This document shows, piece by piece, positions 2,550 through 52,082 of a stretch of DNA of 63,908 nt. Each line of letters starts with the position of its first letter. Position 1 is the stretch's first letter. A program made the translations under genes and the position numbers. Source of the stretch: Lachnospiraceae bacterium (GTDB taxonomy: Bacteria; Bacillota; Clostridia; Lachnospirales; Lachnospiraceae); contig JAIKYA010000055.1 in assembly GCA_024683645.1 (NCBI GenBank), positions 1 through 63,908 of the forward strand, read 5' to 3'. The notes beneath the pieces were generated by a model that saw nothing but the letters and a program-made list of their open reading frames with translations, did not search any database and had not been told where the DNA came from.

Positions 2550-2601
2550 TCTAGTTTCCTCCTTTTCAAATATTTTATTGCCGATCAGGAGTTTACCTGG
2601 T

Positions 2602-2630
2602 AAAAAACTCCGGCACGCAAAATGCCGGAG
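2602..2630 (-). terminator. Attenuator hairpin in the rplJ leader
   Basis: A perfect 8-bp stem (2608-2615 with 2623-2630) is followed on the minus strand by six T residues (2602-2607), about 50 nt before the rplJ ribosome-binding site. It has the form of an intrinsic terminator inside the 5' leader, directly after the L10-binding element, so premature termination coupled to L10 binding is the likely role. Confidence 0.75.
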
Positions 2631-2649
2631 GATAAGTATCAGTATACTC

Positions 2650-2712
2650 TTTCTCCTCGGCAGGCAGCTTACGCTTTACGTCTTGGGACACCTGCTGTCT
2701 TCGGCATGGCCG
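2650..2712 (-). promoter_or_regulatory. L10 (rplJ) mRNA leader, L10-binding element
   Basis: On the minus strand the leader contains CCGAAGACAGCAGGTG and, 30-40 nt later, GCCTGCCGAGGA. These are the two halves of the conserved Firmicute L10 leader that mimics the L10 site on 23S rRNA. It sits between the rplJ promoter and the attenuator hairpin. Recognition rests on the remembered consensus, not on a covariance search. Confidence 0.8.
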
Positions 2713-2729
2713 TTTTGGCGACCTTGAAT

Positions 2730-47963: not shown

Positions 47964-48878
47964 TTACAGGTTTTTCTTCAGAATTATCTTATCCTCTGTT
48001 CTGTATTCCTCATAAAAACCCTGCTTCAGGAAAAGCCCTGCTGCCGTGTTATCGATGGCGATATCATCATAAAGTACGTCAACCCCGTTTTCCTTAGCCG
48101 CCGCGCAGAGCAGTTCCAGCCCCCGTGCTCCGTATCCTCTCCCCCGGTACTTTGAATGGATTATGACATCGGCAACGCAGCCTTCATATTCGGGATCGTA
48201 ATGATATGCTATCTCGCCCACAAATCCGTTCTCATCCTTCAGATATTGGTAGTACCGCCGGTTCTCATGATCAACGACCCAGCAGTCATACCAGTCCTGC
48301 CATTTTTCTTTCGGAAAAGCTATCGTTCCTCCCCATGCATGATTATAAGACATGGTCTCTTCATCAGCCAGAAGGCTCTCTCTGAACCACATATCTTCCA
48401 ATGCGGGCACTACTGCTTCAAGCTTCCGACCGCCTCTTACCTTCCTTCGGAACAGCTGGTCCACCGTACCGTATACAGTCGTCATATTACCGATCTTTTC
48501 AAAACCGTATTTCTCATAAAGACCGATCTCACCGCTCATGATATAAATACTTTCAAATCCGGCGGATCCGGCATATTCCGTGGCTGCGTCGATCATCTTT
48601 TCGGAGATTCTTTTTCCCCTGTATTTCTCATCAACAAATACAAAGCCGATAAACGGAGAGTATGTTGAGCTCTCAGGCAATTCATCCTTAAGGGAAAAAG
48701 TGCAGAAGCCTGCAGGTTCGTTATCCTCAGCCGCCACTATTACCCGTTCTATCTCTTCGAACTCGTTGTTTCTCATTCTTTTAGCCAGATTGGGACCTGC
48801 TTTCCACGAGCAGTTTTCAGCTAATTCAATTGTTTTATCCCATAAGGGGTGACCTTTGGTCATTACGGATATTTCCAT
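47964..48878 (-). CDS. GNAT protein with two acetyltransferase domains
   Basis: The gene encodes 304 residues from ATG 48878, which lies just after the stop of the upstream methyltransferase. The N-terminal GNAT domain (about 1-145) has FVFVDEKYRGKRISEKMIDAA, and the C-terminal one (about 165-304) has DVIIHSKYRGRGYGARGLELL. The second CoA loop is complete. Substrates are unknown. It ends facing the alcohol dehydrogenase gene. Confidence 0.86.
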   Translation of the reverse strand: MEISVMTKGHPLWDKTIELAENCSWKAGPNLAKRMRNNEFEEIERVIVAAEDNEPAGFCTFSLKDELPESSTYSPFIGFVFVDEKYRGKRISEKMIDAATEYAGSAGFESIYIMSGEIGLYEKYGFEKIGNMTTVYGTVDQLFRRKVRGGRKLEAVVPALEDMWFRESLLADEETMSYNHAWGGTIAFPKEKWQDWYDCWVVDHENRRYYQYLKDENGFVGEIAYHYDPEYEGCVADVIIHSKYRGRGYGARGLELLCAAAKENGVDVLYDDIAIDNTAAGLFLKQGFYEEYRTEDKIILKKNL

Positions 48879-48912
48879 TTTTTTCAAATCGTTATCTCGC
48901 TTTCGGGTTGTT

Positions 48913-49698
48913 TTAAGCGCAAATGAACATGCCGTATTCCTTAGGCAGATCGATCGCTCCGTCCGCCGCATGCTCTTTCAGGATATCTCTTATCTTCTGA
49001 ACAGGAAGATCGATAACTGCCTTGAACGAAGCCAGGCTTCGCAGATACTCCACAAGATCTTCCGTTTCGGTGATGTGAAGGGAATCCTCATAGAAAAGAG
49101 GTGCTATCTTCTCAAAGGATCTGCCGAGTATTTCTTTTCCGTTCTGCATGGTGAAGTTGTGATTCGGCTTGAAGTCCTCTCCGCTGAGTCTGAACCATTC
49201 CGCAAGCGTATCGGTAAAGTTGTGCTCCCCAAAGGTAGAGCAGTAGAATGATCCGCCTTTTTTCAGTACTCTCCGCACTTCCTTAAGGCCCGTTCCGATA
49301 TCCGGCACATGATAGAGCATGGCATTGGCGATAACCACATCAAAGCTTTCATCCGCGAACGGAAGGCTCTGGATATCCGCTTTCCGATACTCGATATTAT
49401 CGAGTCTTCCGAGATTCTTCTCCGCAGTTTCCAGCATACCCTCCGATAGATCCGCAAGAATAAGCTTTCCGCAGCCCGATATGATATTCTCATGTCCCTT
49501 CCAGATGCTCCCGGTACCGCATCCGACCTCCAATACCGTCATTCCCCCGCGTATATCATAGTGGGAAACAAGCCATTCACCGTAGCCCTGTCTGTTCACA
49601 GAGTATTTTTCGTGAAACGTCATCCGTATATCCAGCCCCTTCGGCACAGCGTACTGTGCTTTTACCGCGGCGGAATCGTATGAACTTCCGATCTGCAT
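48913..49698 (-). CDS. Class I SAM-dependent methyltransferase
   Basis: The 261-residue protein has motif I VLEVGCGTGSIW (about 56-67), the acidic end of strand two in LILADLSEGML, and the motif IV VVIANAMLYHVPD, as in UbiE/Methyltransf_11 enzymes. The target is unknown. It forms a short operon with the two-domain GNAT. Confidence 0.9.
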   Translation of the reverse strand: MQIGSSYDSAAVKAQYAVPKGLDIRMTFHEKYSVNRQGYGEWLVSHYDIRGGMTVLEVGCGTGSIWKGHENIISGCGKLILADLSEGMLETAEKNLGRLDNIEYRKADIQSLPFADESFDVVIANAMLYHVPDIGTGLKEVRRVLKKGGSFYCSTFGEHNFTDTLAEWFRLSGEDFKPNHNFTMQNGKEILGRSFEKIAPLFYEDSLHITETEDLVEYLRSLASFKAVIDLPVQKIRDILKEHAADGAIDLPKEYGMFICA

Positions 49699-49781: not shown

Positions 49782-51692
49782 TTATTTTTTCCAATCATCC
49801 TCCTTGTACTCGATCACTTCGGTCGTGTACTTCCGCTCCATATCATGGCGCTTCTTCCGGTTTTCCACACTGTCAAAGACGATAGACATATCATAATCCT
49901 CGGGATACAGTTCCTCTGCCTTGACATGCAGCCTGACCCGTTTCTGATTGATCCATATTTTCCGCTTTGCAATCTGGACCCGAAGAATCCCCTTGTCGTT
50001 TACTTCTTCGCATACGATACCGATCTTGTTATCCGGAAGTACCATAACACTGTCCCCGATCCTGAACCTGCGGGACACAATATTTGTCTTGTGATCAGCA
50101 TTAATTCTGCTGATTCTTTTCCCGGAGCGGGTTTTCTCAAGTTCCCCGGTCTGAAATTCATAGGAGGCTGCCGCAGCTTCTCCGTAAGCAGCCGCAACCG
50201 CTGTGTTTAACATATCCTTAGGCATACCTAGTCGGTCAGCGATATAAAACGCACAGCTCTCCCCGGCTTCGCCCACGATCATCCGGTATGTGGGCTTTAG
50301 AGTCTGCCGGTCGAATACCATTCGCGCGTTAATAACGCCCTCACTTCTTTCGGCGTATTCCTTCACCTCGGGATAATGTGTCGTCACAAGGAAGTTAGCC
50401 CCGGTTTCACGAAGCTTTTCCAGTATGGCGATTGCAATCCCCATACCCTCCTGCGGATCTGTTCCCGATCCAAGCTCATCCATAATAACAAAGCCGTCCT
50501 TCTCGATCTTCCCGAGTATGCTGAGGACATTCTTTATGTGCGACGAGAATGTTGAAAGGTTGTCATTAATGTTCTGGCCGTCTCCGATATCGGAAAAGTA
50601 TCCGGAATTCATGCAGAGATCTGCGCTTTTACAGCATACGTGCAGGCCGCACTGCGCCATGACCGCGTTAAGCATCACGGTTTTGATCGCTACGGTCTTT
50701 CCGCCTGTATTCGGACCGGTTATTACAACACCCCGATTATCTGTCCCCAGCTCAAAATTAAGCGGAACACTGATCTTAGGATCCATTAAGGGATGTCTTG
50801 CCTCTTCGAGAACGATCCTTCGGTCAAGATTGAGCTGAGGTTCGGCAGCACCCAGTTCGATACTGAGTTTTCCCTTCGAGAAGATGTAATCCAGCTTCTC
50901 TATAAGGCGCATGTTATCCGTAAGTGTATCCGCACAATCCGAAACCATCGCCGTCAGGGTGTACAGAATGCGGCAGACCTCATTTTCCTCATCTATGCGA
51001 AGACTCTGCAGCTCTTCTCCCAGCTTTACCACACTTTCAGGTTCAATGAACAAGGTGCTTCCGGTACCGGATTTATCGATCAGACTTCCCGGGATCTTAT
51101 ATCTGTATTCCTTCTTTACGGGTACACAGATCCTTCCGTTTCTGGTCGTATAAAAGCTGTCCGCCATGCAATCCCGATTGTTCCTGATAACCGTTTCAGC
51201 TTTTTTCTTCATTTCGTCTTCGAGCTGCTGAAGCTTCATTCTGATCTCAAAAAGCTGCTTCGAGGCGTGATCATCAACACTTTCGCCTCTTATCTGCGCT
51301 GCGATCTCATCCCTGAGTTCCGGTTGGGTGTTAAGGGATTCATCGTAATAACTCAGGGAATTCTGATACTGATGCCCTCTTTTCAGATAGCCGGACAGCC
51401 TTTCCAAAACGGTAAGTACGGTTTGCACCCGCTCCAGCTGATACGGTGTGAGGCAGTCTCCCCTCACTGCTATCGCAAGTATTTCCAGTATCTCCGAAAC
51501 ATCCTGCAACGGCGGATTTCCAAGCTTATCAATTAGTTCCCTGGCATCTGTGGTATCCCTGATCTCTTTTCTGAGTGTACCTTCATCCAGAATGATCCAT
51601 TTTTGTTCTATCTGTTCCTTTGCTTTACCGGTCATTGCAAGGCCGGACCATATTTCTTTTATTCTATCAAATTCGATTTGCTTTTCGATCAT
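49782..51692 (-). CDS. MutS2-like ATPase lacking the Smr nuclease domain
   Basis: The 636-residue protein has an N-terminal helical core (about 1-290), a MutS-type ATPase with Walker A GPNTGGKT (326-333) and Walker B GFVIMDELGSGTDP (about 400-413), and a C-terminal coil and KOW-like segment (about 515-570; RFRIGDSVMVLPDNKIG). Full MutS2 is about 780-790 residues with a C-terminal Smr nuclease domain; here the protein ends without it. There is no mismatch-recognition domain. It is probably a DNA structure or ribosome-associated factor, as for MutS2. The start has a weak ribosome-binding site and the upstream transcript at 51750-52047 may regulate it. Confidence 0.87.
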   Translation of the reverse strand: MIEKQIEFDRIKEIWSGLAMTGKAKEQIEQKWIILDEGTLRKEIRDTTDARELIDKLGNPPLQDVSEILEILAIAVRGDCLTPYQLERVQTVLTVLERLSGYLKRGHQYQNSLSYYDESLNTQPELRDEIAAQIRGESVDDHASKQLFEIRMKLQQLEDEMKKKAETVIRNNRDCMADSFYTTRNGRICVPVKKEYRYKIPGSLIDKSGTGSTLFIEPESVVKLGEELQSLRIDEENEVCRILYTLTAMVSDCADTLTDNMRLIEKLDYIFSKGKLSIELGAAEPQLNLDRRIVLEEARHPLMDPKISVPLNFELGTDNRGVVITGPNTGGKTVAIKTVMLNAVMAQCGLHVCCKSADLCMNSGYFSDIGDGQNINDNLSTFSSHIKNVLSILGKIEKDGFVIMDELGSGTDPQEGMGIAIAILEKLRETGANFLVTTHYPEVKEYAERSEGVINARMVFDRQTLKPTYRMIVGEAGESCAFYIADRLGMPKDMLNTAVAAAYGEAAAASYEFQTGELEKTRSGKRISRINADHKTNIVSRRFRIGDSVMVLPDNKIGIVCEEVNDKGILRVQIAKRKIWINQKRVRLHVKAEELYPEDYDMSIVFDSVENRKKRHDMERKYTTEVIEYKEDDWKK

Positions 51693-51749
51693 CTTTGTTA
51701 AGCGTTCCTTTCGATTTACGTTTATTGCTTCCGTTCATCAAAAGTGCAT

Positions 51750-51787
51750 AAAAAAAACCATGATACCCTGCGCTTAAGATATCATGG
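51750..51787 (-). terminator. Terminator of the 51.75-52.05 kb transcript
   Basis: An 8-bp perfect stem (51758-51765 with 51780-51787) is followed on the minus strand by eight T residues (51750-51757). The loop contains a second copy of the element CTTAAGCG. Confidence 0.88.
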
Positions 51788-52047
51788 TCATGTATACAAA
51801 GATATTGATGTAAAGCACGCGCCGCAATTCCGGGCTAAAGACCCGGAAGATCAGCGATGCTTCACCAAACCAAAATATTAAGCGTAGAGAAATAAAGCTA
51901 ACATAATCACCAGTGTTAACTAAATTCGTACCACTAAAGCCGCACTGCACATATCTGCAGCTTTACATATCATATTGTTCGGATAATGATATGGGTTATT
52001 CACCCACCACGCTTAACATAATTTTACCTCTGTGTTAATAACTTGTG
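51750..52047 (-). ncRNA. Structured noncoding transcript of about 300 nt, family not assigned
   Basis: A transcript beginning about seven bases after the -10 at 52054-52059 and ending at the terminator 51750-51787 would be about 298 nt and has no coding frame of note. Many helices can be drawn. The 5' element TTAAGCGT pairs with ACGCTTAA (51877-51885) over 8 bp and closes a multibranch. Within it are TGGGT/ACCCA, CATATCAT/ATGATATG and CTGCA/TGCAG hairpins. On the 3' side a 7-bp TTCCGGG/CCCGGAA hairpin lies inside a GTGAAGCA/TGCTTTAC stem. Size and context are compatible with a large Clostridial RNA such as the raiA motif, but I cannot confirm that. Confidence 0.75.
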
Positions 52048-52053
52048 CTTATG

Positions 52054-52082
52054 ATACTAGCATTTGGAACAGCCAAAGTCAA
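52054..52082 (-). promoter_or_regulatory. Promoter of the structured transcript
   Basis: The minus strand reads TTGACT (52077-52082), a 17-nt spacer and TAGTAT (52054-52059), between the TauE stop and the transcript. Confidence 0.85.

What the first reader, a model, noticed from the sequence alone, without database searches (positions are those of the whole stretch)
51750..52047. Orphan structured RNA of about 300 nt with its own promoter and terminator
Directly visible: a TTGACT-17-TAGTAT promoter, no useful open frame, an intrinsic terminator with eight T residues, and at least seven helices, including a long-range 8-bp TTAAGCGT/ACGCTTAA pairing that closes a multibranch. Large structured RNAs with this layout are rare. 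It resembles in size and style Clostridial RNAs such as the raiA motif, but its gene context (TauE upstream, MutS2-like downstream) is not the usual one for that class. It could be a divergent member or a new class.
Basis: partly seen in the sequence, partly recalled or inferred. Interest (0 to 1): 0.78.

Follow-up and report, generated by a model that had tools for sequence, protein, structure and literature searches.

The report
Leader-peptide switch upstream of MutS2 paralogue
The structured RNA is most likely not an orphan but a translation-sensing on/off switch in front of a gene for a MutS2-like protein, whose known relative pulls jammed ribosomes apart; the switch holds a tiny conserved peptide gene, and the searches made here found no earlier description of it.

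Summary
Structure, promoter and terminator are real (minus strand), but the RNA is neither orphan nor ORF-free. It is the 5' leader of the downstream MutS2-like gene (MutS2L: 636 aa, MutS core and ATPase, KOW-like barrel, no Smr domain). No Rfam family matches it. A uORF-plus-helix pattern found 40 loci, with titles of Lachnospiraceae and allies; MutS2L lies downstream in 40 of 40. More distant MutS2L genes often carry diverged uORFs (consensus MLSVVVMEKIA[K/N]) followed by terminators; canonical mutS2 genes rarely do (39 of 70 against 1 of 35). The segment ending the long-range helix can pair with the terminator's 5' arm instead. Best explanation: a ribosome held on the uORF opens the helix, an antiterminator forms and MutS2L is made. 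This is the logic of msrD and hflXr control; B. subtilis MutS2 splits stalled ribosomes. The inducer, perhaps ribosome-targeting antibiotics or translation stress, is inferred. The kind is known; leader class and regulated gene appear new.

The parts
52077..52082 (-). -35 box TTGACT
   Evidence: TTGAC[AT] with a -10 of at least 4 of 6 in 31 of 39 loci
52054..52059 (-). -10 box TAGTAT (TG before it)
52027..52030 (-). Shine-Dalgarno GAGG of the uORF
   Evidence: GAGG or GGAG 4-8 nt before the ATG in all 43 rows (41 distinct loci)
51996..52019 (-). uORF ATGTTAAGCGTGGTGGGTGAATAA (MLSVVGE)
52009..52016 (-). P1 5' strand TTAAGCGT (uORF codons 2-4), anti-antiterminator
51886..51995 (-). hairpins P2-P5 inside P1; seen in the four close relatives; this stretch differs in sequence in the divergent ones
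51878..51885 (-). P1 3' strand ACGCTTAA
51870..51884 (-). antiterminator segment CGCTTAATATTTTGG, can pair with the terminator 5' arm
51790..51869 (-). variable hairpin region between P1 and terminator
51750..51789 (-). intrinsic terminator GACCATGATATCTTAAGCGCAGGGTATCATGGTT and T run
   Evidence: 5' arm pairs at 8 or 9 of 9 positions in 40 of 40 loci examined
51735..51750 (-). conserved sequence after the terminator, TATGCACTTTTGATGA
   Evidence: close relatives, with small changes
51698..51705 (-). second ACGCTTAA at the mutS2L ribosome-binding site (possible extra translational control)
   Evidence: close relatives, with small changes
49782..51692 (-). mutS2L, 636-aa Smr-less MutS2 paralogue, the regulated gene
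48913..49698 (-). SAM methyltransferase, possible operon partner
47964..48971 (-). GNAT acetyltransferase with two GNAT stretches, possible operon partner

Best explanation
It is a ribosome-controlled transcription attenuator. Default state: the uORF MLSVV(x) is translated quickly or not at all, P1 (uORF codons 2-4 with ACGCUUAA) forms, the terminator forms and only a short RNA of about 300 nt is made. Induced state: a ribosome held near the start of the uORF (antibiotic or other stall) keeps P1 open, the freed segment (CGCUUAAUAUYAUGG in many relatives, CGCUUAAUAUUUUGG here) pairs with the terminator 5' arm CCAUGAUAUCUUxxGCG, RNA polymerase reads through, and MutS2L (in many relatives with a methyltransferase or GNAT gene before it) is made. 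MutS2L then acts on stalled ribosomes, most likely by splitting them with its ATPase as B. subtilis MutS2 does. Supported by computation here: leader-gene linkage, conserved uORF with SD, P1, terminator, possible alternative pairing, no Smr domain. Inferred: that the uORF is translated, the stalling, the inducer, read-through and the protein's action.
For: MutS2L lies downstream on the same strand in 40 of 40 pattern loci: 36 in held DNA, 4 by whole-genome search and matching contig lengths. In the window plus 39 of these loci the uORF stops after codon 6 or 7 in 39 of 40, although the search pattern fixed nothing after codon 5 but P1. An SD-preceded ML[SITR][VI] uORF lies upstream of MutS2L in 39 of 70 regions (35 of these 39 not of the window type); reverse strand 0 of 70; 20 shuffle sets mean 0.45, at most 2 of 70; canonical mutS2 1 of 35. 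A terminator passing the score set follows the uORF in 25 of the 35 divergent ones. The segment ending P1 is the best partner of the terminator 5' arm in 36 of 40. Folding before the 3' arm is made: P1 in 40 and antiterminator in 7 of 40 when free; antiterminator in 40 of 40 with an initiating ribosome, 29 of 40 stalled at codons 4-5, 22 of 40 at the stop, against 7 and 10 of 40 with control masks. MutS2L resembles ribosome-bound MutS2 (7qv3).
Against: At equilibrium, with the 3' arm present and the uORF masked at codons 4-5, the terminator re-forms in 30 of 40, so the switch would have to be kinetic. Antiterminator pairing is weak (6 of 9, even as the best of 17 offsets) in 5 of 40 loci. 31 of 70 upstream regions show no such uORF within 700 nt (3 of them have it farther off). 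The variation of codon 5 (GTG 20, GTT 10, GTA 9, ATG 1) says little, because the pattern fixed its first two letters as RT. In the 12-codon uORFs amino-acid entropy does not separate frame 0 from frame 1 (1.32 and 1.31), though third positions vary most. B. subtilis MutS2 without SMR binds collided ribosomes poorly (PMC10897456 section 14). No expression or drug data exist here.
Confidence: 0.78

Rival explanations
1. Amino-acid attenuator: the uORF senses shortage of Val/Ile/Leu or Ser tRNAs, as biosynthetic attenuators do.
For: uORFs are rich in Val, Ile and Leu codons.
Against: The window uORF has two Val, one Leu and one Ser only; the regulated gene is not biosynthetic; in the 24 twelve-codon uORFs codon 3 is Ser, Ile, Arg or Thr and codon 5 mostly Val or Ile but also Ser, Thr or Phe.
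Confidence: 0.12
2. Ligand-binding riboswitch: the P1 junction binds a metabolite and the uORF is incidental.
For: Stable multibranched fold with very conserved hairpins in the four close relatives.
Against: The sequence inside P1 differs in divergent members while SD, uORF, P1 and terminator stay; the stop after codon 6 or 7 is kept in 39 of 40.
Confidence: 0.05
3. Independent trans-acting small RNA that merely lies upstream of mutS2L.
For: Own promoter and terminator.
Against: Linked to MutS2L in 40 of 40 pattern loci; the antiterminator segment and uORF have no obvious role in a plain sRNA.
Confidence: 0.04
4. Same uORF switch, but acting mainly on translation of mutS2L through its ribosome-binding site.
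For: ACGCTTAA recurs at the mutS2L RBS (51698-51705) and could pair with UUAAGCG of the terminator arm.
Against: Seen in close relatives; L071, also of that type, lacks it; terminator pairing is kept in 40 of 40 loci.
Confidence: 0.1

Closest known systems
msrD / MsrDL attenuator (leader peptide MYLIFM; PMC10314930, passages read)
   Same: Six-codon uORF; a stalled ribosome obstructs an intrinsic terminator in front of a gene whose product acts on ribosomes
   Different: Different peptide; regulated gene is an ABC-F, not MutS2; drug dependence unknown here
hflXr / rli80 of Listeria (PMC6310831, passages read)
   Same: uORF overlapping an anti-antiterminator, with antiterminator and terminator; regulated gene is a homologue of a ribosome-splitting factor
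   Different: 14-aa peptide with RLR motif and HflX-type protein there; MLSVV-type peptide and MutS2-type ATPase here
B. subtilis MutS2 (PMC10897456, abstract and sections 7, 8, 14, 17 read)
   Same: MutS core and ATPase, KOW-like barrel; phmmer 2.2e-96 to 7qv3
   Different: No Smr domain; 636 instead of 785 aa; paralogue beside a canonical MutS2 in the same genome
raiA motif RNA (recalled)
   Same: Structured RNA of similar size in Clostridia (recalled)
   Different: No Rfam match; different gene context

Membership tests
raiA motif (Rfam) | match to the Rfam covariance model | tested here: not met
   no Rfam match over the leader at gathering score; at E up to 10 only IR_84, MIR8007 and TMV_UPD-PK3, far below their cut-offs; in 14 related loci the only matches are three tRNAs and a TPP riboswitch
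ribosome-mediated transcription attenuator | short uORF with Shine-Dalgarno, conserved | tested here: met
ribosome-mediated transcription attenuator | mutually exclusive terminator and antiterminator, with the uORF overlapping the anti-antiterminator | tested here: met
   by sequence and folding only; equilibrium folds favour the terminator in 30 of 40
ribosome-mediated transcription attenuator | inducer-dependent ribosome stalling and read-through | not testable with these tools
   needs toeprinting, a reporter or RNA-seq
macrolide arrest peptides (RLR, IFVI/IAVV, MYLIFM) | a known arrest motif in the uORF | tested here: inconclusive
   by eye, V/I-rich peptides resemble IAVV/IFVI (motifs recalled; one search gave only two listings, not read); no RLR or MYLIFM in the uORFs listed
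MutS2 | MutS core and ATPase with Walker motifs | tested here: met
   TIGR01069 534 bits, cut-off 400; MutS_V; best 13 fold matches are MutS2 entries
MutS2 | KOW domain | tested here: inconclusive
   five strands at 548-590 in the model; sequence alignment to the B. subtilis KOW region only -1.7 bits
MutS2 | C-terminal Smr domain | tested here: not met
   protein ends after the barrel and short helices; TIGR01069 matched only to position 511 of 790

The most novel reading that the evidence does not exclude
A family of Smr-less MutS2 paralogues (found in 78 of 397 sampled genomes of this family) forms an inducible, antibiotic-responsive ribosome-splitting resistance or tolerance system, switched on by a new class of arrest peptide (MLSVV / MLSVVVMEKIAK) built into a transcription attenuator: a MutS-type protein under arrest-peptide control.
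Probability: 0.45. Interest if true: 0.85.

Novelty: new variant of a known kind. Interest (0 to 1): 0.7.

Why it matters
It gives a testable function to a MutS2 paralogue that is common in this family and that the searches made here found undescribed: a probably ribosome-acting ATPase made only when translation stalls. If right, MutS2-type proteins join HflXr as inducible ribosome-splitting responses to translation inhibitors in gut and rumen bacteria, and a new arrest-peptide family becomes available for study.

Tried and rejected
raiA and other Rfam classes: rejected. Mobile or phage origin of the leader: blastn against phages and plasmids gave nothing, and the leader pattern gave 0 in viral contigs. 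MutS2L-like matches exist in 19 plasmid and 32 phage records, all under 60% identity; the best full-length plasmid match is 38% (H1), and the three full-length phage-record matches are 33-34% and may be host DNA (not followed; one stretch was fetched and bore no annotation). Covariation in the close relatives: with four sequences only 4 of 64 predicted pairs changed on both sides, too little to prove P2-P5. Chloramphenicol/linezolid sensing by Ser at the penultimate place (context rule seen in PMC8987054 passages): attractive for MLSV, but codon 3 is Ile, Arg or Thr in 11 of 24 twelve-codon uORFs, so not adopted. Amino-acid entropy by frame did not discriminate.

Literature: searches for MutS2 with collided ribosomes, with leader peptide and attenuation, with Lachnospiraceae, with upstream open reading frame, with Smr-less or paralogue terms, and with transcription attenuation listed no paper whose title or abstract start describes such a leader. 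One search listed 12 of 1,524; the single hits hold the terms once each and were not read. Most subscription papers are not held. Searches served background.

Choices and drops. The ML[SITR][VI] rule was widened after looking at the data. The stricter rule used before (ML-Ser-Val-Val/Ile/Met, loose SD; framed after seeing the pattern loci) gave 13 of 74 upstream regions: 7 already known loci and 6 new ones. Of the 79 matches three partial ones (G120, G292, G094 contig 31) were not followed upstream; L153 and L154 were added from G004 and G027. In one search usable upstreams were 70 of 77 loci fetched; L082, L153 and L154 count as misses there because an intervening gene puts the uORF beyond 700 nt. 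In one search the window-type members were left out. In some searches the set was the window plus 39 of the 40 pattern loci: L055 was dropped because held DNA ends before the terminator, L037 and L038 because they duplicate L042 and L070. In one search L048 was anchored on a wrong terminator (re-anchored); the other misses were L042 (rank 2), L047 (7) and L043 (14). The canonical control used estimated gene starts and mostly genomes of the window's own genus. The class-wide search (22 of 291 genomes at E <= 1e-110) includes frames of about 800 aa that are canonical by length (L173-L177).

Full report
What is there. The RNA lies on the minus strand. Promoter TTGACT-17-TAGTAT (52082-52054), long-range pair TTAAGCGT (52009-52016) with ACGCTTAA (51878-51885), and terminator (51756-51789) with eight T are as described. 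The fold is far more stable than chance (MFE -103.9 kcal/mol, z -6.4, 0 of 200 shuffles); the plus strand is much less so (z -2.6). No Rfam family matches the leader at gathering score, and nothing convincing appears at E up to 10.

Homologues. BLASTN in 397 genomes of the same family found three clear relatives in three other genera (E 1.9e-43, 9.7e-43, 5.4e-37; the other rows are at E 0.003 or worse). In all four loci the same gene lies directly downstream: a MutS2-like protein 77-80% identical to the window's, while the neighbouring upstream genes differ. The four fold alike (z -6.4 to -7.5). A covariance model of the core found two more, weak members in 397 genomes (G351, E 4.6e-5; G015, E 0.0019), and the terminator-only BLAST hits (G015, G004, G027) proved to be divergent members as well.

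The uORF. In fact a Shine-Dalgarno (GAGG, 52027-52030) stands before ATG TTA AGC GTG GTG GGT GAA TAA (51996-52019; MLSVVGE). Its codons 2-4 are the 5' strand of the long-range helix. The pattern ATGTTAAGCGTGRT-N(91-121)-RCGCTTAA gave 40 stretches in a collection of 84,980 species genomes, with titles of Lachnospiraceae, Butyrivibrio, Blautia, Eubacterium, Eubacteriales or Clostridiales, several naming rumen or omasum; viral contigs gave none. MutS2L lies downstream in 36 of the 40 within held DNA. For the other four a whole-genome search placed it 1,025-1,182 nt downstream on the same strand of a contig of identical length (in L055 this copy is in two pieces and a second copy lies elsewhere). 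So 40 of 40: at 264-399 nt in 13, at 1,025-1,429 nt in 27. Of the 24 intervening genes readable, 15 begin like one another and like the methyltransferase of L053, and 9 like the GNAT acetyltransferase of L054 (family scans done for L053, L054 and L049 only).

Coding evidence. In the window plus 39 pattern loci (L055 dropped) the peptide is MLSVV, once MLSVM, followed by one or two variable residues and a stop in 39 of 40. The pattern did not ask for the stop; it did fix most of codons 1-5, so the third-base variation of codon 5 (GTG 20, GTT 10, GTA 9, ATG 1) is only mild support. GAGG or GGAG stands 4-8 nt before the ATG in every row, which the pattern did not ask for either. Independent of the pattern, 78 of 397 family genomes hold a MutS2L at E <= 1e-130. 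An SD-preceded uORF beginning ML[SITR][VI] lies within 700 nt upstream in 39 of 70 regions (4 of the 39 are of the window type); the reverse strand gives 0 of 70 and 20 dinucleotide shuffle sets give a mean of 0.45, at most 2. This rule was widened after seeing the data; the narrower earlier rule gave 13 of 74, 6 of them new loci. Canonical mutS2 genes give 1 of 35. Of the divergent uORFs 24 have 12 codons, consensus MLSVVVMEKIA[K/N]; their third codon positions vary most (nucleotide entropy 0.98 against 0.56 and 0.67), but amino-acid entropy does not separate frame 0 from frame 1 (1.32 and 1.31). Outside the family, other short SD-preceded uORFs appear upstream of MutS2L-like genes, such as MSVLSVKVINN.

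The switch. The terminator's 5' arm CCATGATAT pairs with its 3' arm at 9 of 9 positions in 35 and 8 of 9 in 5 of 40 loci. The segment that ends P1 can pair with the same arm: taking the best of 17 offsets, 9 of 9 in 19, 8 in 14, 7 in 2, 6 in 5 of 40; the window has 8. It is the best partner of that arm in the whole leader in 36 of 40 (one of the four misses, L048, was mis-anchored). Folding transcripts that stop before the terminator 3' arm: free RNA forms P1 in 40 of 40 and the antiterminator in 7; with a ribosome covering the start of the uORF the antiterminator forms in 40 of 40, at codons 4-5 in 29, at the stop in 22; masks of the same size elsewhere give 7 and 10. Against this, once the 3' arm is present the terminator re-forms in 30 of 40 at equilibrium with the codon 4-5 mask, so the mechanism would have to be kinetic, as attenuation generally is (recalled). 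The 35 divergent members with an ML[SITR][VI] uORF mostly have a terminator-like hairpin after it, often 145-185 nt from the uORF start; 25 of 35 pass the score set.

The gene. MutS2L matches TIGR01069 mutS2 to model position 511 of 790 and the ribosome-bound B. subtilis MutS2 (7qv3, 2.2e-96). The AlphaFold model (pLDDT 83.7) has core, ATPase and five strands at 548-590 where a KOW domain would sit, and no Smr domain; its best 13 fold matches are MutS2 entries. The same genome also holds a canonical MutS2 with a frame of 801 aa. B. subtilis MutS2 splits stalled ribosomes with its ATPase, and its deletion makes cells hypersensitive to chloramphenicol, tetracycline and erythromycin (PMC10897456, abstract and sections 8, 17). 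Loss of its SMR domain dramatically reduces binding to ribosomes (section 14), though the discussion allows partial activity through KOW (section 17); this speaks against simple equivalence.

Interpretation. A uORF overlapping the anti-antiterminator, an antiterminator and an intrinsic terminator before a ribosome-acting gene is the anatomy of the hflXr attenuator, and the msrD attenuator works by a ribosome stalled on a six-codon uORF (PMC6310831 and PMC10314930, passages). I take it as well supported that this is a conserved cis leader with a uORF, and as very likely that it is an attenuator; that stalled ribosomes are the signal is likely, and that antibiotics are the natural inducer is a reasonable guess (about 0.55). 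Six literature searches listed no description of a leader peptide for MutS2.

Noticed in passing
window 2592-2722, minus: Ribosomal protein L10 leader (RF00557, 62.9 bits), the only Rfam match at gathering score in the window.
   Followed up: no
window 47964-49698, minus: A methyltransferase and a GNAT gene follow mutS2L; in other loci a methyltransferase or GNAT sits between leader and mutS2L. The window methyltransferase is only 23-30% identical to the 14 distinct intervening genes it matched.
   Followed up: partly
window 51735-51750 and 51698-51705, minus: Conserved sequence right after the terminator and a repeat of ACGCTTAA at the mutS2L ribosome-binding site in close relatives.
   Followed up: partly
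L055 / genome G734: The leader-linked mutS2L copy matches in two separate pieces; a second, uninterrupted copy lies on another contig.
   Followed up: no
L026 (own genome, canonical mutS2): An SD-preceded frame MLSIGVIYGIL lies upstream of the canonical mutS2, the only such case among 35; not seen in its 91% identical relative L185.
   Followed up: no
L157, L159, L161, L162, L164, L165 (other families of the class): MutS2L-like genes outside the family have their own short SD-preceded uORFs (MSVLSVKVINN and similar), a possible second peptide type.
   Followed up: partly
L060: The only one of 40 loci whose uORF has lost its early stop, giving a 16-codon frame.
   Followed up: no
L074 and L078: One assembly (isolate RGIG5994) holds two leader loci.
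   Followed up: no
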